Positions 33,109-52,844 of a DNA stretch of 64,000 bases are shown piece by piece. The position numbers and the translations under genes are program-made. Under the pieces are notes generated by a model. That model was not told the origin of the DNA. It was given only the letters and a program-made list of their open reading frames with translations, and did no database searches. The DNA is from Herminiimonas sp. (lineage in GTDB: Bacteria; Pseudomonadota; Gammaproteobacteria; Burkholderiales; Burkholderiaceae_D): assembly GCA_028292665.1 (NCBI GenBank), contig JAQGLW010000133.1, positions 1 to 64,000 on the forward strand. Direction: 5' to 3'. How positions within the stretch are numbered: the stretch's first letter is position 1; each line of letters begins with the position of its first letter.

Positions 33109-33164
33109 CGATGGGCGTGAACGACTCGCGCTCCCCATTCCACAGTATTTGTTAAGGGAAAGGC

Positions 33165-33671
33165 TTAATCCTCGTCATCGTCATGATGACTGTGCCGGTG
33201 CTCACCGCGCTCGTGCCCGTTTTCTCTCCAGTGCTCGCGGTGATGATGTTCTTCCTCGCGCTCAATGTAGTAGACGGGTTGTTCTACTACCTGCACCGGT
33301 TCGCGCACCACCCAAACCGGCGCCTGTTCGCGAACAACCGGAACCTGTTCATAGTCCATCACGGTCCGACAGCGTTGCACCATCCGATAAGATGGTGAAC
33401 CCGACGACATCCGGTCGCCTACGAGCGCACCTGTCATGGCGCCAACGGCGGTGGCCACCGTTTTGCCATTGCCGCCACCGACTTGATTTCCCAGAATGCC
33501 GCCGGCAAGGCCGCCAATAATCGCGCCACCATATCCTGAATCGACCGATTGGACCGGAACCCGCTCGTTCCAGCACTCCTGGCGTGGATGTTCAACAGTA
33601 CGGTATTCGGTAGCAGAGGCCAGCAGCGGCAATGCCAGAAGTGCGAGTGTACTAAATGCTTGTCGTAACAT
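33165..33671 (-). CDS. Glycine-zipper 2TM-domain protein, His-rich C-terminus
   Basis: 168 residues starting MLRQAFSTLALLALPLLASA, a clear signal peptide. The glycine zipper GGAIIGGLAGGILGNQVGGG and AVGAMTGALVGDRM (about residues 48-85) is followed by a mixed region and a His/Asp-rich tail (HHHREH, HSHHDDDED) that could bind metal. Envelope location is expected. It stands next to the other glycine-zipper gene and the copper block, so a role in metal stress is possible. Confidence 0.8.
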   Translation of the reverse strand: MLRQAFSTLALLALPLLASATEYRTVEHPRQECWNERVPVQSVDSGYGGAIIGGLAGGILGNQVGGGNGKTVATAVGAMTGALVGDRMSSGSPSYRMVQRCRTVMDYEQVPVVREQAPVWVVREPVQVVEQPVYYIEREEEHHHREHWRENGHERGEHRHSHHDDDED

Positions 33672-33719
33672 GAGGATTCCAGTTGTTTTATTGGGTGAGT
33701 GTCGGCCTGGTGGCAATTG

Positions 33720-34220
33720 TTACCAGTTTCTCTTGGCTACTTCATTGCCGAGATAGCCGCCGCCGACAGCCCCTGCAATTGTCGCAAGGGTACGTCCGTT
33801 GCCACCACCAACCTGGCTACCCAGAAGACCGCCGACTACCGCGCCCACTCCGATGCCAACCGGACTGTTTTGCGCAACAGGTGCCGGCTGCTGATAGACC
33901 GGTGCTGGAGAATATTGGCGAACCGGTTCTGCCTGAGCATAGCTAACCTGCTGAGCGCGCGCTGCGGGTACATGATGCACAACATATTTGTGATGAACGA
34001 TAATGGCAGGCGCTGCGTATTGCGCTGGCGCTGCTGCAACCGGTGTTGCGATTCTGGTATCCGCTAGCACAGCAGTTTCCATGGCTGGCGCTACTGAGCC
34101 ATGTGAATTTGGCAAAAGACCTGTCATTGTTGCGATGCCTAGTAAGCTGGCAAGTGTTACTGAAACGGCTGCGCCGGCAATGAGTGGGTGAATGCGATGG
34201 GTCGACTGGTTCATTGCCAT
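33720..34220 (-). CDS. Glycine-zipper 2TM-domain protein, paralogue of the chromosomal gene
   Basis: 166 residues. The N-terminus (MNQSTHRIHPLIAGAAVSVT) and the zipper (GVGAVVGGLLGSQVGGGNGR, TIAGAVGGGYLGNEVAK) closely match the chromosomal protein at 12782-13483, but the SH3-like C-terminus is absent. A membrane segment lies at about residues 14-36. The shared sequence shows that the transposon cargo and the host have a common gene family. Confidence 0.82.
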   Translation of the reverse strand: MAMNQSTHRIHPLIAGAAVSVTLASLLGIATMTGLLPNSHGSVAPAMETAVLADTRIATPVAAAPAQYAAPAIIVHHKYVVHHVPAARAQQVSYAQAEPVRQYSPAPVYQQPAPVAQNSPVGIGVGAVVGGLLGSQVGGGNGRTLATIAGAVGGGYLGNEVAKRNW

Positions 34221-34501
34221 TTAAGACTCCGTTAGGTTGCCTGACAGGTGGGGTATGACGAGATTAACGTCTGGCAGATACAATCGTTAGTCGGATAACT
34301 GTATCAACTGTAAGCATTTGTAAGCGGAAATTTGCTTGATGATGCTTTCTTGTCAGATTACGCAGTCATATTTCTTCGTTATCCCGATACCAGCTTGTCC
34401 CTGACGGGTTTTTACATTCTTTACACCAACGATGGCTTCGACAGCTTTCAGTCTGTTTAGCGCTGCCCTGACTAACACAACTGCAACATAGCTGGTGGTC
34501 T

Positions 34502-35476
34502 ATGGTCGCGGATGTGCAATCGGTCGTTTCATCCGCCATCGGCGGCGAGAACGTGGGCGAAGTCATCGACGGACGCCAGCGGTTTCCGATTAATGTCCGG
34601 TACCCTCGGGATTATCGTGATTCCGTCCAAACCTTGCGCGAGTTCCCGGTAGTGACGGACAAAGGCGCGCAGGTTCGCCTTGGCGATATCGCGGAAGTCA
34701 AGGTCACCGACGGGCCGCCGATGATTCGCAGCGAAAATGACCGCCTATCCGGTTGGGTCTATGTCGACGTGCGCGGCACTGACCTGCTCTCAGCAGTTAA
34801 AGCGATGCAAGCTGCGGTCCAGAAGGAAGTGAAGCTACCGCCCGGATACTCGATTGGTTGGTCCGGCCAGTTCGAATACCTGGAGCGCGCCGCGGCCAAG
34901 CTGAAGACGGTCATTCCTCTGACGTTGGCAGTAATTTTCATTCTCTTGTATCTCGCCTTCCGGTCAGCATCCGAGGCACTGCTGCTGATGCTGACGGTGC
35001 CATTTGCGCTAATCGGGGGATTCTGGTTTGTCTGGCTGCTCGGCCATGCAGTCTCTATTGCTACGGCGGTTGGCTTTATCGCGCTGGCAGGGTTGGCCGC
35101 CGAGTTCGGCGTCGTCATGCTGGTTTATCTGCGCAATTCACTGAATCAGCGGCTGGGGGCAGGGTATCCGTTGACCAAAGAATTGATTGCGGACGCGATA
35201 CGTGAAGGTGCGGTTCTTCGCGTGCGTCCCAAAGCGATGACCGTAGCAGTCATTCTGGCCGGTCTTCTTCCGATTATGTACGGTACCGGAGCCGGTTCGG
35301 AAGTCATGCAGCGTATCGCTGCACCGATGGTTGGCGGCATGATTACCGCCCCGTTGTTGTCCCTCTTCATCATCCCAGCAGCATGGCGTCTGTTACAGGA
35401 GTGCCGGTTGCGGCAAGCAACTAACCTGTCCCCCTTAACCACCAAGGAGCAAAAAAATGAAATACCTACTATTTAA
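34502..35476 (+). pseudogene. cusA: cusA/czcA-type RND efflux pump, C-terminal fragment
   Basis: 324 residues. It begins inside the second periplasmic domain (VADVQSVVSSAIGGENVGEV) and runs through the C-terminal membrane segments, with FALIGGFWFVWLLGH, VGFIALAGLAAEFGVVMLVY and EGAVLRVRPKAMTVAVILAG to SLFIIPAAWRLL. A whole CusA is about 1,040 residues, so roughly the first two thirds are missing and the proton-relay region of the first half is lost. It cannot pump by itself. Its end overlaps the start of the cusF-like gene. Confidence 0.88.
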
Positions 35477-35888
35477 AGTTATCGGAGCGCTCGGATTTGC
35501 AGTACTGGCGATGAACGCCTATGCTGACCAGGAAGGCAGTAATAAGGGCATGGAGATGGGCGGCATGAAGATGGACTGCTCCAAGCACATGGAGAGCATG
35601 AAAGGCATGGAAGGCATGAAGATGGACTGCATGGGCGGTGATGCTGCAATGCCAATGTCCATGTCCGACGGCGAAGTTAAAGCCGTCGACAAGGCCGGAA
35701 AAAATATAACGCTAAAGCACGGTCCCATAAAATCGAAAACTGTCGAAATGGGGGCGATGACCATGTCGTTTGCTGTACAAGATGCGGCAATGCTCAGCAA
35801 GGTCAAGATGGGCGACAAGGTGAAGTTCCAGGTCGAGAACGTCGACGGACAACCGATAGTCGTGGCACTGACCAAGCAGACGAAGTAA
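35457..35888 (+). CDS. CusF-like periplasmic copper-binding protein, Met-rich
   Basis: 143 residues with a signal peptide (ending NAYADQEG), a Met/Asp-rich region (KGMEMGGMKMDCSKHMESMK) and a C-terminal CusF fold: GEVKAVDKAGKNITLKHGPI, then AMTMSFAV. The His and the MTM methionines match the Cu(I) ligands of CusF; the capping Trp of E. coli CusF is not evident. CusF hands Cu(I)/Ag(I) to CusB. Here its pump gene is truncated, so it would act alone or with a host pump. AAGGAG stands upstream. Confidence 0.85.
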   Translation: MKYLLFKVIGALGFAVLAMNAYADQEGSNKGMEMGGMKMDCSKHMESMKGMEGMKMDCMGGDAAMPMSMSDGEVKAVDKAGKNITLKHGPIKSKTVEMGAMTMSFAVQDAAMLSKVKMGDKVKFQVENVDGQPIVVALTKQTK

Positions 35889-35991
35889 TCAAGTTCAGAT
35901 AACAAAGAGGTAGGGCGGCAGCCTTACGCCGTACCCGTAGTCAGGGAGGGCAAGTGTTTTTCATCAACCTTATTTTCACTCGAAGGAGAAC

Positions 35992-36372
35992 ATGATGGCC
36001 CAACAACAGTACGAATCCTGTATTGAAGCCTGCAACACCTGCGCGGATGCCTGTGACAATTGCGCAGCATCCTGTTTACAAGAACCGGACCCCAAGGCGA
36101 TGGCGCGCTGTATCGCATTGGATATGGATTGTGCGCAAATCTGCCGTCTCGCAGCAAGCTACATGTCACGAAACAGCGAGTCTGCCAGCGCCATCTGCCA
36201 AACATGCGCTGAAATCTGTGAGGCATGCGGCGAGGAATGCTCAAAATTTCAGATGGAGCATTGCCAAAAATGCGCCCAAGCTTGCCGGCGCTGTGCGGAC
36301 GAATGCCGGCGTATGGCAGGCGTCGCGGCAGGTTCCCAGCGAGGAATGGGCACCGGCGCGACCGCCCATTAA
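35992..36372 (+). CDS. Four-helix-bundle copper-binding protein (Csp / DUF326 type)
   Basis: 126 residues. Cysteine-rich helices: CIEACNTCADACDNCAASC, CIALDMDCAQICR, CQTCAEICEACGEEC and CQKCAQACRRCADECR. This is the Csp pattern for storing many Cu(I) ions. No signal peptide, so likely cytosolic. GAAGGAGA precedes the two adjacent ATGs. It is the transposon-borne relative of the host gene at 5267-5620. Confidence 0.87.
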   Translation: MMAQQQYESCIEACNTCADACDNCAASCLQEPDPKAMARCIALDMDCAQICRLAASYMSRNSESASAICQTCAEICEACGEECSKFQMEHCQKCAQACRRCADECRRMAGVAAGSQRGMGTGATAH

Positions 36373-36449
36373 TTGACCTTTTGTCGGAGCGTCTGAACGC
36401 TCCGCCAGGTCGGCTTGAAGTATGCCATCTGAATATTCTAGGAGATAAT

Positions 36450-36677
36450 ATGAAATTGAGATTCTTTTTGCCGCTCACCACAGTGGCAGCATTGGCGCTG
36501 GCCGGCTGCGCAGCAGGACCAGGAACTCAACAAGGAGCTTCAAAGGAGTCGATGCCGATGATGGCCATGTCCGACAAGGACATGATGGAAATGTGCGCCA
36601 GGCACATGAGCCAAATGTCTCCGGAGATGAGGCAAAAGCATATGGAAATGATGCGCGAAATGATGCAACAAAGATGA
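36450..36677 (+). CDS. Small Met-rich lipoprotein
   Basis: 75 residues. A lipoprotein signal peptide ends in the lipobox LALAGC (Cys about 20). The mature part is methionine-rich (SMPMMAMSDKDMMEMC, HMEMMREMMQQR), as in periplasmic Cu(I)-binding proteins. GGAG stands 5 bases before the ATG. It closes the copper block. Confidence 0.7.
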   Translation: MKLRFFLPLTTVAALALAGCAAGPGTQQGASKESMPMMAMSDKDMMEMCARHMSQMSPEMRQKHMEMMREMMQQR

Positions 36678-36691
36678 AGCCATCGAGGGTA

Positions 36692-36753
36692 GCGCCCGAT
36701 ACGCGTGGGTTATGGCGCAATGAAAAGGTGGGTCAATATGAATTGAAATTAAC
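36692..36753 (+). repeat. 62-bp direct repeat, right copy
   Basis: Near-identical to 28790-28850. The block from 28.85 to 36.69 kb lies between the two. Confidence 0.75.
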
Positions 36754-36789
36754 GCCATTACACAATATGTGAAGGTCCTAATACCGAAC

Positions 36790-39285
36790 TCATTTCTTCA
36801 ATTTTACCTGCTTCGTGAATCTATTAAGGAACTTGTCCGGAGTTAAATTATTGTGGTCCAGCAGTTGAAGCACCTCTTTGTATTCAATCGTTCCAATTTG
36901 CTCACCGACAGCTTTAGCATACGTACGCAGCGCCTCCTTAAACAAATGTAGACCTTCCTCGGTGATTACTCTAGTCTCCGGCAACGGTGACGCATCAAAT
37001 TCGAAAAGGTTAGCTGGATGCACCAATACGGGAGTTGTTTTGCACGTATGGTCATATCTCTGCTCGAACCAATTCACGGAGCCAGTCAACTGATTGCAAT
37101 CGTCTTTCGAGACTTTGGAAGTAACAGCCCCGTTCTTGCACTCAATGACAAAATATCGCAGGTTACCAACCGCCCAAAGTACGTCGGGACCACTATTGAA
37201 ATCAAGTTCTGGCCTCTGAGATATGAATCCAATCAGTTCGGCGATTTCCTTCATTGCATCTTCAAAGGCCTTTGAAGTGTCGGGCTTAAATATAAGGTCT
37301 TCCAACACTCCATTAAGGTCAACGAGAAGCTTGTTAGAATCGCTTCCATACGAACGGAGCTTCCATACTGCATTGCGTGATTGCTCAAGGTCTTTAGCAC
37401 TTAGTTGTTCATAATCAATTCCCTCAAGGGGCTTTGTAAGGCGCCTGTTGTAGCCAACGGCAGCTTTCAGGATTATCTGCGCTTCGACCGGATTGGTGTA
37501 TTGCGTATACTCTGCGAGCTGCCACATTAACCATCCACGGGTAATTGAATCGAATTCCTTCTCGCTATTCAGCAGCTTCTGCAAACTTTTTTGTGCTTGT
37601 CCATAGTTAGTTACTACTGATGCGTCGAAAGCTTCTCGCTGGGCGATTGCTATCGACCTGACGGTTCCTTTCTCCGCGTATCCCACTCCGACGAGGCATT
37701 CTCTTGCCAGTTTCTTCCAAGCTGAATCTTGATTAAGACAGTAATCAATGGCTTCATCAATATCTTTCATGCCTCCCTCAAGCTGTTTTGTGACGTCTGC
37801 AGCAAGATTGAGTTGCGCCCGTGTGGCAGGCGAAAACATATCCTTTGCATCGAGCAAAAACAGTACTTTTGTTAATTCGGCACCCATCAATAAAACAACA
37901 CAGTAGTCATCGTTTGCTCTGACTCCTCTCCCGATACCCTGTTCGATGCGCTGCACTTGACGTCCAATAATATGACGACTACGGCCCAAAAAATTGTTCT
38001 CTATTTTTTCGATTAGACGTCGAGCTTTCGGTAAACCGTCAAGGACCAGTATGCGACAAGCCGCGTTCGGTAAGTCTATGCCGTCGTATTTGTTAACGAG
38101 AACGACTAGGCCAAGATGGCCAGCTTTTAATTCTTTTACCGTTGTCTCAAGGTTATTTTTGTTGCAAATGCGGTCGGCAACGTCTTTCCAAAAACTTTCG
38201 GCGCGGTACTCAGAGCCGACAATAATCACTACATTGTATTTTTTTGACTTTTCTTTCAAATATTCTTTTAATTCGATTTCCGAGATGTTCGGGTCAATTT
38301 CTTGCGGCGCTAATATCATGCGGTCGCCGATATCGTTAGCCGAACGCGGAGTGATGTGTTTAGTTACGCCACCAGGGTTTGCTTTGAAATCACTTACAAG
38401 AATTGAATCGTCGGCCAATGTTGCTGTCATAAAAATTCTGCGCTTTGCATTGTCGAAACTTGGTATCGATTCGATTGGCAGACACCGTGGCGAAATTTCT
38501 AATCGTTGGCCTCCAATGACACAGCGGCAGTGAGAAAGGTCACTTTTGATTAACGGCCAATTAAATTTTAGAGCATCGTCATTCCTAAACTTCGACAGAA
38601 TACGAGTGGCCTGTTCACTCTTCTGGTGCCACGCCCAAAATGGGACAAGCATTGTAGGACCAGGGTCTCTAGCTTCGATTTCAAGCAGCATCGATTCATT
38701 CTGACCCCGTAAATCGTCCCTAAATAATCCAAGTAAATTTGCGTACACCTCATGGGTATGGTCGACCTCGATTGAAAATTGAGATTCCATGCTGTTCATG
38801 CAAGCGTGAGCATCATCTACAACAACTGCTCCAATCGGCAATTTGATACCGTCGTCCCCTACGCCAAACTTGGAAAACCCGTTAATAAGTTTGTGAATAT
38901 TAATAATTCCAATGGCCTTGCCCTGTAATACGGCTGGGGAATCCGGTTCTCGTTCGACTGGCAACCCTAGCAAATGCGCTTCGTTTTCAACTTGGCTCAA
39001 AAGATAATTGTCTGGAACAATAAAAAATGCTGGCGCTATCCCTTCATTCAGGCAGCTTTTAAGTAGCAGTAAACCCACTACAGTCTTGCCGCCACCTGTG
39101 TTCATCTTAAGCACAACATCTTTTTCTCGACGACGCTCGAACCAGTGCTCGAGCACCTCAGCTTGTACATCGCGAAGATATTGATACTTTGGGTCTTTTT
39201 CCGCCAACAGAGTAAATATTTCTCGCGGGTTCGGCTCCTTATCAAGTAGCGATGCGCCGCGAAGTTTGCTGAGGTCTAAGGCCAT
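36790..39285 (-). CDS. SF2 helicase fused to a PD-(D/E)XK nuclease domain
   Basis: 831 residues. The helicase part has Walker A MNTGGGKT (61-68), the DExH-box variant DDAH (157-160), an FMTATLADD motif III region and QGIGRGVRANDD as motif VI. In the C-terminal domain GPDVLWAVGNLRYFVIECKN (PD at 700-701, ECK at 715-717) followed by NQLTGSVNW is a restriction-endonuclease-like active site, P-D...E-x-K. It should unwind and cut nucleic acid. It is divergent from the SIR2-Argonaute gene with a 239-base shared promoter region, so the two may form one defence locus. I do not know a named system with this exact fusion. Confidence 0.82.
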   Translation of the reverse strand: MALDLSKLRGASLLDKEPNPREIFTLLAEKDPKYQYLRDVQAEVLEHWFERRREKDVVLKMNTGGGKTVVGLLLLKSCLNEGIAPAFFIVPDNYLLSQVENEAHLLGLPVEREPDSPAVLQGKAIGIINIHKLINGFSKFGVGDDGIKLPIGAVVVDDAHACMNSMESQFSIEVDHTHEVYANLLGLFRDDLRGQNESMLLEIEARDPGPTMLVPFWAWHQKSEQATRILSKFRNDDALKFNWPLIKSDLSHCRCVIGGQRLEISPRCLPIESIPSFDNAKRRIFMTATLADDSILVSDFKANPGGVTKHITPRSANDIGDRMILAPQEIDPNISEIELKEYLKEKSKKYNVVIIVGSEYRAESFWKDVADRICNKNNLETTVKELKAGHLGLVVLVNKYDGIDLPNAACRILVLDGLPKARRLIEKIENNFLGRSRHIIGRQVQRIEQGIGRGVRANDDYCVVLLMGAELTKVLFLLDAKDMFSPATRAQLNLAADVTKQLEGGMKDIDEAIDYCLNQDSAWKKLARECLVGVGYAEKGTVRSIAIAQREAFDASVVTNYGQAQKSLQKLLNSEKEFDSITRGWLMWQLAEYTQYTNPVEAQIILKAAVGYNRRLTKPLEGIDYEQLSAKDLEQSRNAVWKLRSYGSDSNKLLVDLNGVLEDLIFKPDTSKAFEDAMKEIAELIGFISQRPELDFNSGPDVLWAVGNLRYFVIECKNGAVTSKVSKDDCNQLTGSVNWFEQRYDHTCKTTPVLVHPANLFEFDASPLPETRVITEEGLHLFKEALRTYAKAVGEQIGTIEYKEVLQLLDHNNLTPDKFLNRFTKQVKLKK

Positions 39286-39476
39286 AAGCTTTCTTTCGTA
39301 TATGAGTTACATTGCCGGCCACGCTTCTGCCAACGCTTCTTTGCGTCGGCACTATTTCCACAGCACGGATTCCAGACTAGTTGGATACCCCTCTTTTATG
39401 GGTATTTGCCCTCGATAATGGTACGTACTGCCAATCGGCACATAGTTATTAATGGACAACAATTGTATTGTCCGCT

Positions 39477-39493
39477 ACATTTGTTACAAATGT
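39477..39493. promoter_or_regulatory. Perfect palindrome between the helicase-nuclease and SIR2-Ago genes
   Basis: ACATTTGTTACAAATGT has 7-base arms around TTA. A second inverted repeat, GGACAA...TTGTCC, lies just to the left (39454-39473). Both sit 30-70 bases before the SIR2-Ago start, so they could be operators of the divergent pair. Confidence 0.5.
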
Positions 39494-39524
39494 AATTGTT
39501 AATTACTTTGGGAGTAGGCACTCA

Positions 39525-42500
39525 ATGACAGTGGTTTCCGAACTCCCTGAGACAACAGGTCGCCTAACGACCATGTCAGTCGACACGTTTATACGCGCTG
39601 TCGCCGTAAATCGTGGTCGTCCTCTGTGTCTGCTGCTTGGCGCCGGAGCATCGATTTCTTCGGGTATGCCCTCTGCACAGCGCTGTATCTGGGAGTGGAA
39701 ACGGGACATTTTTGTCACTAAGAATCCGACGCTTCGAGAGTCCTTCGGCGAGCTTTCACTCCCCGGCACTCGGCAGCGAATTCAGCGCTGGCTGGACCAA
39801 CGTGGGAGCTATCCTGCTGCTGATAGCCCAGAGGAATACTCGTTTTATGCTCGCGAGTGCTACCCGACCGGTCAGTTTCGACGTAGCTTTTTCCAGTCGT
39901 ATGTAGCGCAGGCTAAGCCGCACACCGGTTACAAGCTGCTGCCTATTTTGGTAAAAGCAGGCCTCATTAGAACCGTATGGACGACGAATTTTGATGGCTT
40001 AGTCGGACGGGCTTGTGCGGCGGCAGATGTCGTGTGTGTTGAAGTCGGTATTGACACTGCCCATCGTGCTGCCAGGCGTCATGTCGAAGGGGAACTGCGG
40101 GTTATATCGATGCACGGCGACTATCGATACGACGACCTTAAGAACACAGAAGAAGAACTGCAGCAGCAGGAGGCCGCTCTTCACACTGAGTTTCTTCATG
40201 AGCTTGGGGACTATGACCTCGTCGTTGCCGGCTACAGTGGTCGTGATGTCTCACTCATGGCGATTTTGCATCAAGTCTATGCCCAGAGTAGCCCTTGCTG
40301 TTTGTACTGGTGTGGTTTTGGCGAAGTGCCTTCTGAACCGGCTGAGGCTTTACTCAGAAACGCCGGCGGGGCAGGGAGAGTTGCGTTCTATGTCCCATCT
40401 GATGGGTTCGATGACCTTGTTTCACGTTTAGCGCTCAGACAGTTAGACGGTGTACTTCTTGCTGATGCCAAGAAAATTCTTGCTGCCGCTGCAGAGCCGG
40501 CAAGCCGTCCAATGGCGTTTTCTGCCCCTCCGCTATCGCCGACGAGTCTTGTCAAGAGCAACGCCTATCCCTTAGGTTTTCCAAGTCAAGCGCTCATACT
40601 TGACCTAGCTTTTCCTGAGGATACGGACCGACGTACCTGGCTTGATAAATGCCTCCCGACAAAAGAAGGGCTCACAGTTGCCATGGATAATGGGGCGTTG
40701 GCCTTGTCTAGCTCATCAGATGTTCAACTGGCGTTTGGCTCTGCGCTTCGAGGTATTCCGGTCACAGTGGCGCTTTCTGAGGAGGACGTCGCCAGGGACG
40801 GACGAATTCGCTCACTCCTGCGTCGGGCACTAATTCAAAGTGTCGCTAAGCAGCTTCAATCTGATACAGATGGAAGCCGTCGCATATGGGAACCTCAGCA
40901 TTACATAGTCCAAGTCCTCCAAGGGATAGGCTATCAACTACACCGGGCGTTGTCATTCCATCTGATGACGTTAGAGAATAAGCTACATGTAGTACTCATG
41001 CCTGAAGTCATTGCGAAGGCACCTGACGGCCAATTCGCCGACCGTGATTCGAGCAAAGTCTTGCGCAATGCAGTGTATGGCTATCAACACAACAACGTTT
41101 TCGATGCTGACCTCAAGCACTGGACGAGCAAGGTGACGAACTTAGACGTCGAGGCACCCGGTGGTGGCACATTTCGCATTTCGAATGTCCCTATCTATGC
41201 CGGACTTTTCCAGAAAGGTAAAAATCCTCTGCCGCAGGCGATGCAGCGGCATGCGCGCCAGAGCGGCGTCGTGGTGTCTGATGCTAACCTAATATTTAGC
41301 TCAACTAATGGCAGGGCAGAAGTCAAGAATACTAATCCTCTGAAGGGGCTAGTCGAAAATCGTCCCTGGGATTTCCAGCTAACCAGTTCAGGGCTGTCAT
41401 CCTCAATCGATATCGCTGTGGTTTGTCCTCAAACCGATTCAGCCAAACTAAAAAGGTTTCTGACCCAGTTTCAAGAGAAATCTCAGCCGAAATCTTCAGA
41501 GCGAGACTATTTGCATGACTTCCCGGGTTTCTCGTCCGCGTTTGGCCTGCCATTAACCTATCCAAATCCTGGAGAAGCTTCGTGGTTTAATCTTGATGAC
41601 GGGGTGGCTGGTGACCCGCTGTCAGCAGCAAAACAACTCGCCCAACGTATTTGTCGTGCGCTTGACGTTCTCCGAAGCTTACGACCGAGTTCTGTTGCGA
41701 CCATATTCATTCCAACACGCTGGACACCGTTCAAGATAGTCGATACAGAGACGGAAATATTTAATCTTCACGACTATGTGAAGGCGTACGCGGCACGGCA
41801 GGGGCAAAGCACGCAGTTTATTCGCGAAGAAACCACAGTCACTCCGCAGCCATGTAGAGTTCGTTGGTGGCTGTCCTTAGCACTCTACGCCAAGGCGCTT
41901 CGGACACCTTGGCGCCTCGACTGCCTGGACGATAAGACTGCGTTTGTCGGAATCGGATATAGCATTGACCACGGGGCCACTCGCGGCAGACATGTTTTGC
42001 TTGGGTGTAGTCATTTGTACAGTGCACGAGGTGAAGGACTGCAATTTCGGCTGGGCCGTATCGAAAATCCCATTATTCGCGGTAGGAATCCGTTCATGTC
42101 CGAGGATGATGCGCGGAGAACCGGTGAGACGATTCGACAGCTTTTTTTCGATGCAAAGATGTGTTTGCCGCAAAGAGTCGTTGTTCACAAGCGGACGCCT
42201 TTCACTATGGATGAACAGCGCGGATTAGTTCAGGGATTGGAGGGTGTTGCCAACGTTGAGCTCATCGAAGTCAATGTCGAAGAATCACTCCGCTACCTCG
42301 CATCAAAATTCTTTGATGGGAAGCTGGATATAGACAAGTTTCCAGTTCCCCGGGGCGCGGTAATTGTCCAAAATGAGAACACTGCATTGCTATGGGTACA
42401 TGGGGCTGCACCTAGCGCCAACAATCCGAATTTTAAATACTACCAAGGTAAGCGACGCATTCCTGCGCCATTGTTAATTCGGCGCTATCTTGGCCAATCC

Positions 42501-42674
42501 GACGTTGTCCAGGTTGCGACTGAGATTCTTGGATTGTCGAAAATGAATTGGAATACGTTCGATTATTACTCGCGTTTGCCGGCTACTCTCGACTCGGCAA
42601 GCGCAATCGCGAAGGTGGGGACCTATCTCAGTGGATTTGGCTCTGCGCCCTACGATTATCGCTTGCTGATATAG
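39525..42674 (+). CDS. SIR2-short Argonaute fusion (single-chain SPARSA-like NADase defence protein)
   Basis: 1,049 residues. The N-terminus is a SIR2 domain: CLLLGAGASISSGMPSA (GAGAS 39-43), TTNFDGLV (N155, D157), MHGDY (H197) and AGYSGRD. The last 250 residues are PIWI-like (FVGIGYSIDHGATRGRHVLL, LLWVHGAAPSANNPNFKYYQ, IRRYLG, FDYYSRLPATLDSASAIAKV). The middle (about 330-760) would hold APAZ and MID domains. Short prokaryotic Argonautes with SIR2 partners kill the cell by NAD+ depletion when guide RNA finds invading DNA; here both parts are on one chain. The catalytic tetrad of an active slicer is not evident. ATG 39525 has GGGAG about 10 bases upstream; a longer frame from 39468 runs through a palindrome and is less likely. 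Confidence 0.85.
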   Translation: MTVVSELPETTGRLTTMSVDTFIRAVAVNRGRPLCLLLGAGASISSGMPSAQRCIWEWKRDIFVTKNPTLRESFGELSLPGTRQRIQRWLDQRGSYPAADSPEEYSFYARECYPTGQFRRSFFQSYVAQAKPHTGYKLLPILVKAGLIRTVWTTNFDGLVGRACAAADVVCVEVGIDTAHRAARRHVEGELRVISMHGDYRYDDLKNTEEELQQQEAALHTEFLHELGDYDLVVAGYSGRDVSLMAILHQVYAQSSPCCLYWCGFGEVPSEPAEALLRNAGGAGRVAFYVPSDGFDDLVSRLALRQLDGVLLADAKKILAAAAEPASRPMAFSAPPLSPTSLVKSNAYPLGFPSQALILDLAFPEDTDRRTWLDKCLPTKEGLTVAMDNGALALSSSSDVQLAFGSALRGIPVTVALSEEDVARDGRIRSLLRRALIQSVAKQLQSDTDGSRRIWEPQHYIVQVLQGIGYQLHRALSFHLMTLENKLHVVLMPEVIAKAPDGQFADRDSSKVLRNAVYGYQHNNVFDADLKHWTSKVTNLDVEAPGGGTFRISNVPIYAGLFQKGKNPLPQAMQRHARQSGVVVSDANLIFSSTNGRAEVKNTNPLKGLVENRPWDFQLTSSGLSSSIDIAVVCPQTDSAKLKRFLTQFQEKSQPKSSERDYLHDFPGFSSAFGLPLTYPNPGEASWFNLDDGVAGDPLSAAKQLAQRICRALDVLRSLRPSSVATIFIPTRWTPFKIVDTETEIFNLHDYVKAYAARQGQSTQFIREETTVTPQPCRVRWWLSLALYAKALRTPWRLDCLDDKTAFVGIGYSIDHGATRGRHVLLGCSHLYSARGEGLQFRLGRIENPIIRGRNPFMSEDDARRTGETIRQLFFDAKMCLPQRVVVHKRTPFTMDEQRGLVQGLEGVANVELIEVNVEESLRYLASKFFDGKLDIDKFPVPRGAVIVQNENTALLWVHGAAPSANNPNFKYYQGKRRIPAPLLIRRYLGQSDVVQVATEILGLSKMNWNTFDYYSRLPATLDSASAIAKVGTYLSGFGSAPYDYRLLI

Positions 42675-42827
42675 CGTAGTCCTGCGAACTTGGCACCGGC
42701 ACGAACTGTCGGTGTAAAGAAGTGCTGGTCACCTGCTCTGGTCGAATATGCTCGTTCACGACGGTCCGCGAGCTAGCGTGGAATGTGAGTTAGAAACTCA
42801 TAATATTTAATCTGTCAGTTAGTCGAT
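42675..42827. other. Non-coding stretch
   Basis: Short spacer with possible promoter for the following operon; no gene recognised. Confidence 0.4.
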
Positions 42828-43322
42828 ATGGAACAATCGCTCTATTGGAAAGAACTATTTCAACTGAAGGTACACGGTCATTACGTCGAGTGCTTTCTCC
42901 GGCAGTCCGAGAATTGGGACAAGTCATTGAGCATGTTCTTGGCCATTTGTTCGAGTGCAAGCATCGGGGCATGGGTAGTTTGGAAAGACTATGCACAGGT
43001 ATGGGGACTAGTTATTGCTATCTCGCAAATTATTCAAGCCGTACGACCGTTTCTTCCTTATCACGAGCGGATAAAGTGCTTAGCTGTTCTACGAAATAGC
43101 TACGCTGAGCTATTCGTGTTTGCGGACTCAAGATGGCCAAATATTGCGGCCGGAGAAACGGCCACGGCGGAGATAGCAAAACTACGTATGGATATTCGAG
43201 GGCGAAAACTTCAGTACGAACAAAAGGCATTCCCATCATCAGGACTTCCTGATAGCAACGAGTTTTTAGAAAAGTCCACACAAACCGCCGAAAAATACTT
43301 TTCAAATTTCTACGGAGTCTGA
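42828..43322 (+). CDS. Small two-helix membrane protein (unknown)
   Basis: 164 residues. Hydrophobic segments at about 35-52 (SMFLAICSSASIGAWVVW) and 55-76 (YAQVWGLVIAISQIIQAV) form a hairpin; the rest is cytosolic helix with many Lys/Arg/Glu, ending EYFSNFYGV-like. I do not recognise the family; small two-helix proteins of this shape occur in effector modules. It is the first gene of a four-gene operon and ends 2 bases before the next. Confidence 0.75.
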   Translation: MEQSLYWKELFQLKVHGHYVECFLRQSENWDKSLSMFLAICSSASIGAWVVWKDYAQVWGLVIAISQIIQAVRPFLPYHERIKCLAVLRNSYAELFVFADSRWPNIAAGETATAEIAKLRMDIRGRKLQYEQKAFPSSGLPDSNEFLEKSTQTAEKYFSNFYGV

Positions 43323-43324
43323 AT

Positions 43325-43450
43325 ATGGCTACTTCACCTACCAAGCCACCTACGCCCCCATCTTCCCCTAGAAGGGATGAAAGAGGGGCCACGTTTCCCG
43401 TTCCGCCGAGAACACCGGCAATGCCGCCAATTCAGCCACCAAGGCGATAA
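43325..43450 (+). CDS. 41-residue proline-rich peptide
   Basis: The gene starts ATG at 43325, two bases after the preceding stop, with GGAG seven bases upstream inside the previous gene. The peptide has 14 prolines of 41 residues (MATSPTKPPTPPSSPRRDER, then FPVPPRTPAMPPIQPPRR). No signal peptide or membrane segment. Proline-rich tails bind SH3-like or membrane-associated partners; here the coupling suggests it works with the two-helix protein. It is too short for usual gene callers. Confidence 0.65.
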   Translation: MATSPTKPPTPPSSPRRDERGATFPVPPRTPAMPPIQPPRR

Positions 43451-43525
43451 GACAGCGTACCCTTTCCACAATGCAACGAAATATTCTCGCGTCTAAAATT
43501 GTAAAAAAGGCACTCCATTAAACTT

Positions 43526-44809
43526 ATGCCTCCAAAATTAAAAGCTTTTCTAAGTTGGTTACGCCGGTGGTTTATTGCTGTATTTACCTCTGCATTTTTT
43601 CCCGCATTCGTTGCTTTAATCGGTGTGATTGCTGGGCTATGGTCATCTTTATATACTGCGGAATTAAAAGATGCCCTACCTAAACTGTTGTCGGCTGGGA
43701 TGTACGGTGAATTCAAGAAGGAGGCCATAATCGGTGGCGAGTTAATAGTTGGATTTTTCTTCCTATTTGCTTTGCACCAGACGGCCAAGAACATGCAAGA
43801 GAAGGATGCAAGACGAGCGCTCCTTGCAGAAACCGATAAGCTTAAGCTGCTCGTTGAACGTCTTGAGACCTTACCGCCGGATGGATTTCTGCAGACATTT
43901 CAAGCTCTGTATCAAGAAGTGGCGTATTTGCCTTTGCTCGCATGGTCAGAGGACACCATCACAAAGGAAGACATTGAAGAGGCAATTAGAAGCGTCTTGG
44001 CTGCCATTGCAAATTTAGCGCATAAGTTCGATGGTGCCCCAGACAGGGAGCAATATATTGCCAACCTGATGCTGTGCCGAACGAAATCCCAGTTAAGTAA
44101 TCTTACACAGGCCGAGCGCGATGATTTGGAATCACGCCTGATATTCTGTCCGGAGCTTCCTACTCCGAAGTTAAATGGAGTGGAAGCGGTGCTAGATTTG
44201 GCTCCCCAATTGAGGTCAGATTACGACGACTCAGACCCAAATGCGGTCAATACTCCACTAATTGTTCTGCCCGTACCCGTAAAATTCGAAGTGGACTTAG
44301 GCCCAGAGCACGGCCGCCAGTATACTGTGCTTCCTGGTGCACCGTTCGTCGCAGCAATGCACCGCTACGCAGCATTCGAGTCAATACGCGCTCTGCTTGA
44401 CTGGTGCAGGGAAAGTGCTGATGTCACCAAGGCGACCGTGAACGAAATTAGCGCATTTTTTCACGACGGGGCCGGTTCGGATATCAAGAGCTTTATCGCA
44501 ATCCCTGTATGTATGACAGTCGACAAAGAGGCGCCGGCCCCGGAGGTAATCGGTGGACTACCAAAAGACGTAGATAATGGTGTGCGTCGCGAAGACTGTT
44601 TGGCGGTGCTCAACATTCATAGCAAGTCAGAAGATATTCTAGGAGCAACAGGATATGGAATGTTCGTTCCGATTATTGAACCTTTTATCAGAGTATTGGC
44701 TTTGTTGCTTGTTAGCTACGGAGCAACTCTATCGACTCCGCTAGCCACGGATGCTATACTTAAAAATAAGGTGGAAAATCAAGATGACCAAAAATCAAAC
44801 ATTTCTTAA
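43526..44809 (+). CDS. Membrane protein with C-terminal GAF-like domain (unknown)
   Basis: 427 residues. Two N-terminal membrane segments (about 16-40 and 69-86), a Leu-rich coiled stretch (KARRALLAETDKLKLLVERL-like), then a central helical region and a C-terminal domain (about 255-400) resembling GAF folds (FESIRALLDWCRES, SFIAIPVCMTVD, CLAVLNIHSKSED, FVPIIEPFIRVLALLL). GAF domains bind small molecules. The architecture suggests membrane sensing or effector work; I do not recognise a named family. Its end overlaps the next small gene. Confidence 0.7.
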   Translation: MPPKLKAFLSWLRRWFIAVFTSAFFPAFVALIGVIAGLWSSLYTAELKDALPKLLSAGMYGEFKKEAIIGGELIVGFFFLFALHQTAKNMQEKDARRALLAETDKLKLLVERLETLPPDGFLQTFQALYQEVAYLPLLAWSEDTITKEDIEEAIRSVLAAIANLAHKFDGAPDREQYIANLMLCRTKSQLSNLTQAERDDLESRLIFCPELPTPKLNGVEAVLDLAPQLRSDYDDSDPNAVNTPLIVLPVPVKFEVDLGPEHGRQYTVLPGAPFVAAMHRYAAFESIRALLDWCRESADVTKATVNEISAFFHDGAGSDIKSFIAIPVCMTVDKEAPAPEVIGGLPKDVDNGVRREDCLAVLNIHSKSEDILGATGYGMFVPIIEPFIRVLALLLVSYGATLSTPLATDAILKNKVENQDDQKSNIS

Positions 44810-44975
44810 GCGGTATGTACTGCAGCAGACTCCCAAGCAGACCACCAAGCAGGTTGCTGAAAGAGTGGCGGCGGTTATTAACGACTCGACGGTAAAATCT
44901 ACTGAGGTTATTCGACAAGGGCGTTTTGTTTATGGTCGGGTGTCGCCAGTTCCTAAGATGCGGGCTACTGCATAG
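44784..44975 (+). CDS. Small basic protein at operon end
   Basis: 63 residues, starting within the last codons of the preceding gene (26-base overlap). Sequence MTKNQTFLKRYVLQQTPKQT, VAERVAAVINDSTVKSTEVI. Basic, no membrane segment. A terminator follows directly (44998). Function unknown; a regulator or antitoxin-like role is possible but unproven. Confidence 0.55.
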   Translation: MTKNQTFLKRYVLQQTPKQTTKQVAERVAAVINDSTVKSTEVIRQGRFVYGRVSPVPKMRATA

Positions 44976-44997
44976 TACCGTCAAACTGCCTTGATGC

Positions 44998-45030
44998 AAA
45001 AAGCGAGCTCTTGAGCTCGCTTTTTATTTT
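44998..45030 (+). terminator. Bidirectional intrinsic terminator
   Basis: AAAAAGCGAGCTC (44998-45010) and GAGCTCGCTTTTT (45013-45025) form a perfect stem, followed by ATTTT. It ends the 42828-44975 operon and also serves the tns operon coming from the other side. Confidence 0.9.
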
Positions 45031-45110
45031 TGGCTCATAGAAATAAGACCATGTATTGAATTTTTCTTTCAGGGGATAACTACCTGTGTCGAAAAATCGT
45101 GTAAGCGTCT

Positions 45111-46244
45111 TTAACGCGCCTTGTTCGTTCGGCACACGGCTTTAAAGGCTTCAACGAGGCTGGCAGTTTTTGGAAGACGGTTTCGAGCATGACGGTATTG
45201 GGACCAACAACTGCACTCGGACATGAACTCGGTCAGTGTTAGCAGATGAAGGCGCTTACGGAGCCTCCGAAGACCTGCTTCGACCCTTTTACTTAACTGT
45301 TCGTCAAGTTTGAAGTTGTCTCGAGGTTTTCGCCCGCACTTTATCTGACTCACCAGTTTGAGCCCTGAGCTGCAGTTGTCGAGAAAAGTACAAAGCAATA
45401 TATGTTTTACTGGGGAAAAGGGCCCTTTTGTACATGGACGAACCATGAGAGCGGGCCATGCATTCCTTTCTTTGGGATATGTGCAATCCACATGGGCAAG
45501 AAAGTCAGGTCCGTAAGCAGCCCTTATATCGTAGGCAAGCTGCCTGCCTGCAATGAAAGGACCGGGCGTTACATAGCCCTTGTCTTCAGCAAGCCGCCGA
45601 TATTCGTCATTCCAGCAATCTCGATAATCTACATGTTTTTCAAGGGCGACTCCCGACCGGCAGGCGATTTCCATGAGTACCCAAGCAGGGAGTCCAAAAT
45701 CGATGCAAGTCCCTTTGACTTCGTGCGGCATGCAATAAGACCAGAGACGACCGAAGTTTCTGACAGCAATCCGCGTTTCTTCAAGATGTTGCCGGTGCTT
45801 GGCACAATAGTGCACTGCTGGCAGCATATGTGACCTATGCCAGTAGCTCGTGCCGAACCGTGACAGGTCCTCCTGAACGCAGTGCCGGCATAGGCGCCGA
45901 TATGCCACGCCATTGGTTACAGACTGTGTCAAGGAGTGGAACGAACCTCCAGAGATTCCCACCCGAGAAAGAACCAAGGCTTTAAGCCGCGCGGCTAAGT
46001 CATTCGCCATGAAGCTGACGATATAAGGGAAGGCACTATGGGCATATACAAGTTCTTCGACGTCGATTTTAGTTACCGTCGCTAACTGCCTCACGTAAGA
46101 AGGCAAGAAGATGGAACTGTATGTCCCAGACACGTTGGCGAGGGAAAATACGAGCTCCTTATGCGACAAGCCGTTTTCCCTGCACGCCCTCACTACGAGA
46201 CTTCCAAGTAGCTCGTCAGGGAAGGGACGTGGGAAATGCAGCAT
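45111..46244 (-). CDS. tniQ: TniQ/TnsD-family target-selection protein
   Basis: 377 residues. The N-terminal part (PRPFPDELLGSLVVRACREN) is the TniQ signature, and the zinc finger is in LCRHCVQEDLSRFGTSYWH, with HYCAKHRQHL. TniQ/TnsD proteins choose where Tn7-like transposons insert, by DNA binding, and recruit TnsC. It is shorter than Tn7 TnsD (508) and longer than or equal to CAST TniQ. The presence of the element inside comEC suggests that this protein recognises a comEC sequence. It is the last gene of tnsABC-tniQ, 4 bases after tnsC. Confidence 0.85.
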   Translation of the reverse strand: MLHFPRPFPDELLGSLVVRACRENGLSHKELVFSLANVSGTYSSIFLPSYVRQLATVTKIDVEELVYAHSAFPYIVSFMANDLAARLKALVLSRVGISGGSFHSLTQSVTNGVAYRRLCRHCVQEDLSRFGTSYWHRSHMLPAVHYCAKHRQHLEETRIAVRNFGRLWSYCMPHEVKGTCIDFGLPAWVLMEIACRSGVALEKHVDYRDCWNDEYRRLAEDKGYVTPGPFIAGRQLAYDIRAAYGPDFLAHVDCTYPKERNAWPALMVRPCTKGPFSPVKHILLCTFLDNCSSGLKLVSQIKCGRKPRDNFKLDEQLSKRVEAGLRRLRKRLHLLTLTEFMSECSCWSQYRHARNRLPKTASLVEAFKAVCRTNKAR

Positions 46245-46248
46245 CGTG

Positions 46249-47874
46249 TCACACCGATAAAACTTTGTTTAGGTCACAAACCACCCCCATCAGCTGCAGT
46301 TGGTGGAATACCCGGGTTCCCTCCGACTTTGCCAATCGAACGGCATTTCGCAGGTCATTAGGCTCTAACTTAGGTTCAGCCTTCAGTTTTATTGCTTTTG
46401 ATTTCACTCTGGCGGGTGGCTGAAGGTGTTTGAGTGCTAGAGCGGTACCCTCAAGCGTATTGTTCACCTCTCCGCTCGCCTCGACTGCAGTCGCAATCTG
46501 CTCGGCTTGCTTGCTTTCGACTCCTAGATGAGTCAGAACAGTCGTTACTGACGGTGCAAAGTTACTGTCCCCTGGGCGGGTCGAGGCTCCTCTTAGGCGT
46601 TTGCCCACGTACTGGCTTTCTACGTTGCGTAACATATCTTCAAAACCGAGCGGGGCGATATCGTCGTAAGCTTCTAACGCTTTAAGATTATTGTTTCGCA
46701 ATGCCTCGACCATAGGCATTACCATTGACAGCTCCTTTTTGGCGACGGCGTCGATAAGCTGAACTGTAATGGTTTCGGAGCCATCCATCATGGCGCGCCA
46801 CTGGCAGGCGGCAAAAAGCTTGATGGCGATATCAATAATGCCTTGCGAGTAGTGATACATCACATCAGATAGATGAGGATTCAGTTCAGCAGGCCTCTGT
46901 ATCCACTGGAATCGCCAAAGAACGCCCAAAAAGTCATCCCATTCTCCTGGCTCCTCGGGGCTTCCTTGGGTTAGTCTGTCCCAATAAGCGGAGCCTTTTC
47001 CGACTGAGCGACGCGCTTGGCGAAAGTCCAGCCCTAATACTCGTCTTGCTTTGTTGGTGCCAATGAACATGATTGGAACGCGTAATTCATTGGACGCCGA
47101 CACAAGCAAAGTCATTAGCGACTGTTTGTTCTTTGGCGCGTTTTCAAGATTCTGGATTTCATCGCAGACAAGTAATCCAACGCAATGAATGTGCATCACA
47201 CGAGCGACATGATTCATTAGCGTCTCAACGCTTGGCTTGCCGCGCATTGCATAGGTCTCATAGTAGTTCGCGTCCGGAATCAATGCATCAACTTTCCGAA
47301 GTATGGAATGTGCGAGTCCCTTGACACTGACTCCGTCATGCGGGGTTTCAATATGAAGATAGGGAATTTGCCAGACTCCAAGGTCTGGGTGATGTATCAC
47401 TTGTGGTGTCATCGCTAGCACCCGTTCGACTGTCGTGGACTTGCCGACGCCGGAAATGCCGATAAGCGACGTCGAGAGCTGCGGTGTGGCAGATGTTCGG
47501 CTCATTTGAAACGCCTTTCCGGCTTTTTGGTTATCGTAAATCTTCTGAAACATTTGTGTATGTTGAATTGTCCGAGGCTCCCGGCCGACGTACCCTTCAC
47601 GCATCAGTACGTCTAAAGTGCGTGCCAATTGGACGTGCCGCTCGAGCGGCACCATGAAACTGGACAGTCCCGCGACAAGCTGCATGCGCTCGTGTATTTG
47701 CCAGTTCCGCTGTTCAGCGTGAAATTCTGGGCTTTGCATAAGCGCATTAGTGAGTTCAATGTCGTCGAGGCATGGCGGAAGCGCCGCAATAAGCGGGTTA
47801 TTTCGGTACCGGGGCAATCGCTGCTCTGAGTAGCGTGCGTCAACGATTACATTTATGAGATTTCTACTTTCCAT
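46249..47874 (-). CDS. tnsC: Transposition ATPase TnsC
   Basis: 541 residues, AAA+ protein that links target selection to the transposase. Walker A is GISGVGKST (139-147), and Walker B is GLLVCDEIQNL. The N-terminal and C-terminal extensions of about 100 and 200 residues would contact TniQ and TnsA/B. The start overlaps the end of tnsB by 11 bases. Confidence 0.93.
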   Translation of the reverse strand: MESRNLINVIVDARYSEQRLPRYRNNPLIAALPPCLDDIELTNALMQSPEFHAEQRNWQIHERMQLVAGLSSFMVPLERHVQLARTLDVLMREGYVGREPRTIQHTQMFQKIYDNQKAGKAFQMSRTSATPQLSTSLIGISGVGKSTTVERVLAMTPQVIHHPDLGVWQIPYLHIETPHDGVSVKGLAHSILRKVDALIPDANYYETYAMRGKPSVETLMNHVARVMHIHCVGLLVCDEIQNLENAPKNKQSLMTLLVSASNELRVPIMFIGTNKARRVLGLDFRQARRSVGKGSAYWDRLTQGSPEEPGEWDDFLGVLWRFQWIQRPAELNPHLSDVMYHYSQGIIDIAIKLFAACQWRAMMDGSETITVQLIDAVAKKELSMVMPMVEALRNNNLKALEAYDDIAPLGFEDMLRNVESQYVGKRLRGASTRPGDSNFAPSVTTVLTHLGVESKQAEQIATAVEASGEVNNTLEGTALALKHLQPPARVKSKAIKLKAEPKLEPNDLRNAVRLAKSEGTRVFHQLQLMGVVCDLNKVLSV

Positions 47875-50907: not shown

Positions 50908-51076
50908 ATTTGTCCTTTTTTAATCATTAGTTTTCCAAGCAAACGCAAAATCGCTTTATGCTTAAGCACTTATCGCTTGCCTATACCTCCCACGCTGTGG
51001 GTAAACCGGTATAGACACCCATAAGCGGCAATTCGCGGAACATCTCAAATCTAAGTCATTAATCTTAAATTTGTGT

Positions 51077-51104
51077 AGATATATCTCAAATATGAGATAT
51101 ATCT
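51077..51104. promoter_or_regulatory. Perfect 12-bp inverted repeat upstream of tnsA and the DUF6471-like gene
   Basis: AGATATATCTCA and TGAGATATATCT flank AATA. It lies between the divergent genes tnsA (start 50907) and 51146. A partial copy (ATCTCAAAT) is near 51044. It is a good operator candidate for transposition control. Confidence 0.7.
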
Positions 51105-51145
51105 TGTTGGCGTTTTGCTGCCAAATTTTTATCAGGCGGGACGAA

Positions 51146-51394: not shown

Positions 51395-51730
51395 GTTATT
51401 CGCTGCCTCGAGCCCTGAAATCGTTAAAAATTGGTTACGGCGGGTAGTAATTCGCAATTATGATTTCATTATCGTTATCCGAACACTTGGTTATTTTAGG
51501 GGCTGTTTCCCATTATATGTAGGCGAAGGACGGGAACCCTCTGACTGTTCAGTCACTGCGCGATTGGCTTAAAGTCACCTAAAATTGTTTGGCCTCGGTG
51601 CCTCTGGCAAGTTTATGAAGAAATTTAGACCGGTACCGAGTAGAGAGCCTTGAACAAGACCAATCGCCACGGCAGGGCAAAAACGACATCAGACTGATGC
51701 CGGGTGAGTCATCGTTTAACAAGGAAAGTG
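51395..51730. other. Non-coding stretch
   Basis: No gene recognised; may carry the promoter of the DUF6236-like gene. Confidence 0.4.
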
Positions 51731-52765: not shown

Positions 52766-52844
52766 AGTTAGACTATCCAATGGAAGTAATTGCGAGCGTT
52801 CTAGCTGTCTTCTGCATTGCGCACATGTGGCGTGATGAATTTCT

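What the first reader, a model, noticed from the sequence alone, without database searches (positions are those of the whole stretch)
39525..42674. Single-chain SIR2-short Argonaute carried by a Tn7-like transposon
SIR2 residues N155 and H197 and a C-terminal PIWI region are on one 1,049-residue protein. The usual SPARSA is two genes; fused forms are known but few. Being transposon cargo, it may protect the element or host against competing plasmids and phages by NAD+ depletion.
Basis: partly seen in the sequence, partly recalled or inferred. Interest (0 to 1): 0.85.

Follow-up and report, generated by a model that had tools for sequence, protein, structure and literature searches.

The report
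Transposon-borne fused SIR2-Argonaute defence protein
A bacterial jumping gene carries a one-piece Argonaute-NADase protein of a known anti-invader type, and it sits inside the gene for the cell's DNA-uptake channel, breaking that gene.

Summary
Confirmed: window 39525-42674 (+) encodes an intact 1,049-aa SIR2-APAZ-MID-PIWI protein. Its halves match the two subunits of Geobacter SPARSA by sequence and predicted fold (Z 29.6 for residues 14-559, Z 31.1 for 575-1049). N155 and H197 are invariant in 35 of 35 aligned sequences. Such fusions are not rare: they are the named subclade S1A, 102 were counted in 2018, and one scan here returned 44 loci. The Tn7-like cargo claim holds, and the ends are now mapped: 36,533 bp (23437-59969), TGGT...ACCA termini, repeats at both ends, CCAG on each side. 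The element splits the competence gene comEC. Five of five order-mates with TnsB 38-44% identical also have comEC broken at the same place and encode a DUF4096 protein, partial in one, which I propose as target selector. A second fused Ago lies beside a divergent TniQ/TnsC/TnsB set in Burkholderia sp. H160. NAD+ depletion is inferred, not tested. Verdict: a new member of a known kind, in an interesting vehicle.

The parts
39525..42674 (+). fused SIR2-APAZ-MID-PIWI short Argonaute (S1A-type), 1,049 aa
39525..40490 (+). SIR2 NADase domain (about residues 1-322); N155 codon 39987-39989, H197 codon 40113-40115
   Evidence: Pfam SIR2_2 at residues 150-256; N155 and H197 invariant in 35 of 35; in the phmmer alignment they face GsSir2 N142 and H186
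40515..41210 (+). APAZ region (about residues 331-562; borders approximate)
   Evidence: model residues 14-559 align to Sir2-APAZ chains 8jl0_A (Z 29.6, rmsd 8.7) and 8y80_E (Z 29.1, rmsd 5.1); no Pfam hit
41247..42671 (+). MID-PIWI half (residues 575-1049), with H749, K753, Q764 and K790 invariant
   Evidence: 8y7z_B Z 31.1, rmsd 2.6 over 410 residues; phmmer 8in8_C E 1e-42
36790..39285 (-). divergently transcribed helicase-like defence candidate PDC-S28, 831 aa
   Evidence: PADLOC PDLC04986 at 1,016 bits; ResIII, DEAD, Helicase_C_2
45111..46244 (-). TniQ/TnsD-like target-selection protein
   Evidence: Pfam TniQ E 1e-18, TnsD E 2e-12
46249..47874 (-). TnsC-like AAA ATPase
   Evidence: Pfam TniB E 5e-14, AAA_22 E 4e-16
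47864..50059 (-). TnsB-like transposase
   Evidence: PADLOC TnsB E 1e-12; Mu-transpos_C below cutoff; 38-44% identical relatives in the same gene order
50056..50907 (-). TnsA endonuclease
   Evidence: Pfam TnsA N and C domains
51146..51394 (+). small divergent gene next to tnsA, shared with related elements
   Evidence: tblastn match in 3 of 5 related elements and in L009
23819..24847 (-). element-encoded protein with a C-terminal DUF4096 domain; proposed comEC target selector
   Evidence: relatives over the full length only in genomes with this TnsB family; selector role is inference
23437..59969 (.). Tn7-like transposon, 36,533 bp
   Evidence: both ends inside comEC; matching termini and repeats
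23437..23461 (+). left terminal motif TGGT..C..ACA.TTAAAACCT.AA
   Evidence: two matches in the window, 0 expected; the pattern was read off the two ends themselves
59945..59969 (-). right terminal motif, inverted copy
23445..23588 (+). three TnsB-site-like repeats at the left end (23445, 23522, 23567)
59632..59962 (-). TnsB-site-like repeats at the right end (59941 best; 59632, 59920, 59892 weaker and individually no better than chance places)
   Evidence: weight-matrix scan of the 75-kb contig
23433..23436 (+). CCAG direct repeat, left copy
59970..59973 (+). CCAG direct repeat, right copy
22693..23436 (+). 5' part of host comEC, interrupted
   Evidence: Pfam DUF4131 E 6e-40; junction
59970..60030 (+). 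next comEC codons (QSDWKIFNRTGIGHLISISG) after the right end; the rest of comEC is at contig C64 about 75,010 and on contig C19

Best explanation
The protein is a single-chain SPARSA (short-pAgo subclade S1A). APAZ plus MID-PIWI hold a 5'-phosphorylated guide RNA. Pairing of the guide with invading single-stranded DNA switches on the fused SIR2 NADase, NAD+ is hydrolysed, and the cell stops growing or dies before the invader spreads. It is cargo of a 36.5-kb Tn7-like transposon that inserts into comEC. I infer that it protects the element, through its host lineage, from plasmids and phages, and that breaking comEC also closes natural DNA uptake. Shown: the gene, domain order, predicted fold, conserved catalytic residues, element ends, and comEC interruption in this and related elements. 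Inferred: guide type, target, NADase activity, abortive infection, benefit to the element.
For: Full-length PADLOC fused-pAgo matches. Sequence match of both halves to GsSPARSA. Fold match of both halves (pLDDT 81.4, pTM 0.69). N155 and H197 invariant in 35 of 35; they face GsSir2 N142 and H186, whose alanine mutants lose NADase activity (PMC10781750 passages). MID residues H749, K753, Q764, K790 invariant, in line with the HK-type MID reported for short pAgos (PMC6299218 passage). dN only 0.16-0.25 versus three homologues, dS not computable and presumably saturated. Element ends. comEC broken at the same place in 5 of 5 order-mates with TnsB 38-44% identical, intact in 4 of 4 tested with TnsB 31-33% identical. 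A second association with TniQ, TnsC and TnsB genes in L009.
Against: No activity data for this protein. The model is weak at residues 198-206 (next to H197), 836-848 and 1008-1049, and the Sir2-APAZ half aligns with a high rmsd (8.7 and 5.1), so the domain packing is uncertain. Among neighbours of 39 fused-Ago loci, profiles of TnsA, TnsB, TnsC and TniQ hit only L009 (itself in the profiles) and L018 (TnsA); the two nearest homologues, L015 (77%) and L007 (75%), are not among them, so the transposon link is not general. Cargo may simply hitchhike. Absence of the PIWI catalytic tetrad was judged from the alignment and recall, not measured.
Confidence: 0.85

Rival explanations
1. The protein is a fused SPARSA, but its main client is the transposon: it acts as an addiction or exclusion module that harms cells receiving rival elements, not as general phage defence.
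For: It is cargo inside mapped ends. A second mobile element with a serine recombinase sits about 20 codons away in the same comEC gene, so competition for this site is real.
Against: A rival did insert beside it. SPARSA is reported to act against phages and plasmids in general (PMC10781750 and PMC12205087 passages). In 37 of 39 fused-Ago loci no tns-type neighbour was found (flanks up to 10 kb, shorter in several).
Confidence: 0.15
2. The gene is intact but silent or inactive: a passenger kept only recently.
For: No expression data. The promoter was not examined.
Against: Full length, catalytic residues conserved, dN 0.16-0.25 at uncomputable, presumably saturated dS, GGGAG upstream of the ATG.
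Confidence: 0.07
3. It works together with the divergent helicase PDC-S28 (36790-39285), which feeds or exposes single-stranded DNA to the Argonaute.
For: A related helicase ends 5-15 bp before the start of the Ago match on the same strand in L027, L030, L032 and L033 (helicase domains checked by Pfam in L030 only). Helicases near pAgos are reported (PMC6299218 passage).
Against: Here it is transcribed away from the Ago. The similarity is only 22-25%. It is its own PADLOC candidate system. Two of the three nearest homologues, L015 and L011, have a methyltransferase there instead.
Confidence: 0.15

Closest known systems
S1A short pAgos: SIR2-APAZ-pAgo fusions (PMC12205087 passage; PMC6299218 passages); Paraburkholderia graminis C4D1M homologue L038
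   Same: Same domain order on one chain, same conserved residues; 43% identical to L038 in the alignment. That the P. graminis protein has been tested in the laboratory is recalled (Zaremba 2022, not held).
   Different: Nothing seen in the protein architecture; its vehicle differs.
Geobacter sulfurreducens SPARSA (GsSir2-APAZ/Ago; PDB 8in8, 8jkz, 8jl0, 8k87, 8y7z, 8y80)
   Same: Both halves align in sequence and predicted fold; the N142/H186 dyad is conserved as N155/H197.
   Different: GsSPARSA is encoded by two genes; this is one chain.
Tn6022 and AbaR-type Tn7-like elements that insert in comM through TnsF (PMC10293859 passages; PMC11472951 passages)
   Same: TnsABC plus TniQ, insertion inside a natural-transformation gene, an extra element-encoded protein.
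   Different: Target is comEC, not comM; the extra protein has a DUF4096 domain, whereas TnsF is related to tyrosine recombinases.
Tn7-like transposons with defence cargo (PMC8649781)
   Same: Defence genes between mapped transposon ends.
   Different: The words Argonaute, pAgo, Sir2, comEC and competence do not occur in the main text held of that paper; its supplementary tables were not seen.

Membership tests
S1A short pAgo (fused SPARSA) | SIR2, APAZ, MID and PIWI on one polypeptide | tested here: met
S1A short pAgo (fused SPARSA) | SIR2 catalytic Asn and His | tested here: met
   N155 and H197 invariant in 35 of 35; they face GsSir2 N142 and H186
S1A short pAgo (fused SPARSA) | MID-PIWI half most similar to short pAgos | tested here: met
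   best structural matches to residues 575-1049 are SPARSA, then SPARTA, SPARHA and SPARDA Ago chains
S1A short pAgo (fused SPARSA) | Catalytically dead PIWI (no DEDX) | tested here: inconclusive
   G811 is invariant where I recall the first Asp of active pAgos; no alignment to an active pAgo was inspected residue by residue
S1A short pAgo (fused SPARSA) | RNA-guided, DNA-triggered NAD+ hydrolysis | not testable with these tools
   needs purified protein
[quoted passage not shown]
Tn7-like transposon | Inverted ends with arrays of TnsB-site-like repeats | tested here: met
   The terminal 29 bp match at only 20 of 29, and other places in the window reach 20 and 19; three of the four right-end repeats score no better than scattered places. 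The weight is on the clustering and on the comEC halves
Tn7-like transposon | 5-bp target-site duplication | tested here: inconclusive
   only a 4-bp CCAG repeat is certain; in G363 I read CAGG, in G058 none
Tn7-like transposon | Site-specific insertion | tested here: met
   comEC interrupted at the same place in the window and in 5 of 5 order-mates with TnsB 38-44% identical

The most novel reading that the evidence does not exclude
This is a previously undescribed Tn7-like family that homes into comEC, the DNA-uptake channel, through its own DUF4096 protein (23819-24847) as target selector. By one insertion it disables natural transformation and brings a DNA-triggered suicide Argonaute, so the host lineage is closed to rival DNA twice over.
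Probability: 0.35. Interest if true: 0.72.

Novelty: new member of a known kind. Interest (0 to 1): 0.45.

Why it matters
The Argonaute itself adds one member to a known subclade. The value is in the vehicle: mapped transposon ends show how a fused Argonaute can move between genomes, a second association (L009) suggests it is not unique, and the insertion breaks comEC. That makes a testable case of a mobile element that may both block DNA uptake and punish incoming DNA, in parallel with comM-targeting elements. The DUF4096 protein is a concrete candidate for a new Tn7 target selector.

Tried and rejected
Considered and rejected. (1) Chance open frame or domain misreading: excluded by full-length profile matches and fold. 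(2) A transposon end next to tnsA at 51.1 kb: the local repeats there found no partner. A first search for shared 18-mers between assumed flanks found nothing in any of 6 elements; in the window the right flank given stopped at 53.9 kb, short of the true end, and for L063 and L064 only 328 and 92 bases of left flank were available. (3) The junction at contig position about 75,010 as the right end of the Tn7-like element: I saw none of the repeats there. I read it as the far end of a second, serine-recombinase element. (4) A Tn7-like origin for the whole Ago family: profiles of TnsA, TnsB, TnsC and TniQ hit only L009 (which was in the profiles, so its scores are inflated) and TnsA in L018 among neighbour frames of 39 Ago loci.

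Led nowhere: single-sequence fold of the DUF4096 protein (pLDDT 33.6, not used); its profile against solved structures (one hit, E 0.53); viral contigs with TnsB; plasmids with the tns DNA; the TniQ protein in plasmids gave 183 records, none at 60% identity or more, which says little. The Ago in plasmids: 104 records, none with one place covering 80% of the protein. TniQ (PF06527) is present in 12 of 38 fused-Ago genomes searched (L009 not held), but contig numbers could not be tied to the loci in general, so nearness was not worked out. A coordinate match beside L012 was checked and dropped, because the start of the L012 gene there does not look like TniQ (by eye). L018 has TnsA about 9 kb from the Ago and TniQ nearby if contig C15 is the same contig; its ends were not mapped. 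dS came back as not computable.

Rows dropped: of the 44 loci, 34 were aligned in A1; 10 short, cut or segment-broken matches were left out (L013, L039-L043, L046-L048, L050). In the neighbour analysis 39 loci were used.
Full report
The gene. Window 39525-42674 (+) is a complete 1,049-codon frame with a GGGAG about 10 nt before the ATG. Pfam gives SIR2_2 (E 4e-9) and nothing else at E 0.1. PADLOC matches the whole protein to a pAgo model (1,322 bits, residues 16-1049) and to the fused Aga_SIR2 model (633 bits). Against solved structures by sequence, residues 602-1047 match the Argonaute subunit of Geobacter SPARSA (8in8_C, E 1e-42) and residues 32-350 its Sir2 subunit (8in8_B, E 3e-31). The genome holds one match.

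Fold and residues. An AlphaFold2 model from 35 sequences has pLDDT 81.4 and pTM 0.69, with weak stretches at 1-12, 198-206, 836-848 and 1008-1049. Residues 575-1049 align to SPARSA Ago 8y7z_B at Z 31.1, rmsd 2.6 over 410 residues. Residues 14-559 align to Sir2-APAZ chains 8jl0_A at Z 29.6 (rmsd 8.7) and 8y80_E at Z 29.1 (rmsd 5.1). N155 and H197 are invariant in 35 of 35 aligned sequences and face GsSir2 N142 and H186, both needed for NADase activity (PMC10781750, passages seen). H749, K753, Q764 and K790 are invariant and fit the HK-type guide pocket reported for short pAgos (PMC6299218, passages seen); that these four are the pocket residues is my reading of the alignment. G811 is invariant at the place where I recall the first catalytic Asp of active pAgos.

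How common the fusion is. PMC12205087 (passage seen) names four short-pAgo subclades, S1A being SIR2-APAZ-pAgo fusions. PMC6299218 (passages seen) counted 106 short pAgos with their own APAZ, 102 of them with SIR2. One scan of genome contigs found 44 loci from many phyla, 34 of which I aligned. In a tree of 35 proteins the window protein groups with Acidithiobacillus ferrivorans L015 (77%) and Gallionella acididurans L007 (75%), then a Verrucomicrobia contig L011 (67%). This host mix suggests horizontal transfer (inference). In 399 genomes of the order (own included), 4 had a match at E 1e-30: the window's own, two with separate Sir2 and Ago frames (G278, G387), and one with only an Ago match listed (G124).

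The vehicle. The ends lie elsewhere than next to tnsA. GC falls sharply at about 23.5 kb. There the host gene comEC (DUF4131 domain) is cut after the codons GDQREISQ. The repeat AAAACCTGAACT occurs at 23452 and 23575, and with one mismatch on the other strand at 59851 and 58586. A weight matrix from the three left repeats, run over the whole 75-kb contig, gave as its best places outside the training sites 59941 (14.4 bits) and 59632 (13.3) on the opposite strand. The next best is 24879 (13.0), and 59920 (11.8) and 59892 (10.7) lie among scattered places of like score. So only 59941 stands out by itself; the rest count as a cluster. At 59969 the element ends in ACCA and comEC resumes as QSDWKIFNRTGIGHLISISG. 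The element is therefore 23437-59969, 36,533 bp, with CCAG on both sides. The terminal 29 bp alone match 20 of 29, and other places in the window reach 20 and 19. The case rests on the comEC halves, the repeat clusters and the terminal pattern (two matches, 0 expected; the pattern was read off these ends). The Argonaute at 39525 is inside.

Related elements. Eleven of 399 genomes have a TnsB at E 1e-60. The five best besides the window's own (38-44% identical) share tnsA-tnsB-tnsC-tniQ and, past tniQ, the DUF4096 protein (partial in L066/G238). In all five the ComEC competence domain starts at profile position 11-13, whereas in three with TnsB 31-33% identical it starts at 1, and so it does in G056 (33%). 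G279 (29%) was not tested. As a background, 49 of 60 genomes of the order had a match to the domain and 11 had none. In 46 of the 49 it starts at position 1; the exceptions are the window's genome, G058 (one of the five) and G059, which is not among the 11 TnsB hits. Sequence upstream of the ComEC 3' part was read in six cases and left junctions in three (window, G363, G058); searches for the ComEC 5' part in the stretches taken from G204 and G238 found nothing. The alignment of the DUF4096 protein found full-length relatives only in the window's genome, G058, G267, G204 and G363, and a partial one in G238. The other 25 of 31 matching genomes match only parts, nearly all the DUF4096 tail shared with IS elements. 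Among genomes tested, this is the set with comEC split at this place; comEC was not examined in all 399. On this I propose the protein as target selector (inference). Its fold could not be predicted.

A second carrier. In Burkholderia sp. H160 (L009) a 61%-identical fused Ago stands next to TniQ, TnsC and TnsB genes (Pfam), then a gene in the tnsA position (profile match, but L009 was in that profile) and a relative of the small divergent gene. The order is that of the window, where two further frames lie between Ago and tniQ. TnsB is only 17% identical to the window's. Its ends were not mapped. Among neighbours of 39 fused-Ago loci only L009 and L018 showed tns-type genes. The Ago is thus occasional, not obligatory, Tn7-like cargo.

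Neighbourhood. Divergent from the Ago is a helicase-like PDC-S28 gene. Distant relatives of it end 5-15 bp before the Ago match in L027, L030, L032 and L033; a 349-aa frame in L028 clusters with them but has no Pfam hit. Other cargo includes a GGDEF-EAL protein, a 3' fragment of an RND pump gene and a CusF-like copper protein.

Mechanism. I take the SPARSA mechanism over: RNA-guided DNA recognition, SIR2 activation, NAD+ loss, growth arrest or death. This is inference from close homology. What the transposon gains is also inference: protection of its lineage, and possibly closure of natural transformation by breaking comEC.

Literature. Searches for Argonaute with Tn7-like and SIR2, Tn7-like with comEC (its one paper, passages seen, concerns comM), Tn7-like with cargo and Argonaute, Argonaute with transposon, cargo, SIR2 and defence island and transposon with comEC, insertion and TnsB listed no paper whose title or abstract start reports a fused Argonaute as Tn7-like cargo or a comEC-targeting Tn7-like family. 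The library holds only open-licence papers, so this is a weak negative. comM targeting through TnsF is described in PMC10293859 (passages seen). Defence cargo in general is described in PMC8649781 (listing and passages seen).

Noticed in passing
window 60031 to contig C64 about 75,010 (L070): A second mobile element with a large serine recombinase (60088-61974) sits in the same comEC gene about 20 codons from the Tn7-like right end, bounded by short inverted repeats around ATGAATACATC.
   Followed up: partly
window 23819-24847: A protein with an unassigned N-terminal part and a C-terminal DUF4096 domain; relatives over the full length only in genomes that carry this Tn7-like family; candidate target selector.
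   Followed up: yes
window 34502-36677: A 3' fragment of an RND pump gene, a CusF-like copper protein and a Cys-rich protein (the last by eye only): copper-related cargo that looks partly decayed.
   Followed up: no
window 30367-33108: A Cache-PAS-GGDEF-EAL signalling protein carried as transposon cargo.
   Followed up: no
L011:7154-9976 and L015:6959-9937: Large N6/N4 DNA methyltransferases end 22 and 61 bp before the match of two closely related fused Agos.
   Followed up: partly
L027, L030, L032, L033 upstream of the Ago: A helicase distantly related to PDC-S28 ends 5-15 bp before the fused Ago match, likely one operon.
   Followed up: partly
G059: The ComEC domain match starts at profile position 32 in a genome that is not among the TnsB hits; another kind of interruption or an assembly break.
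   Followed up: no
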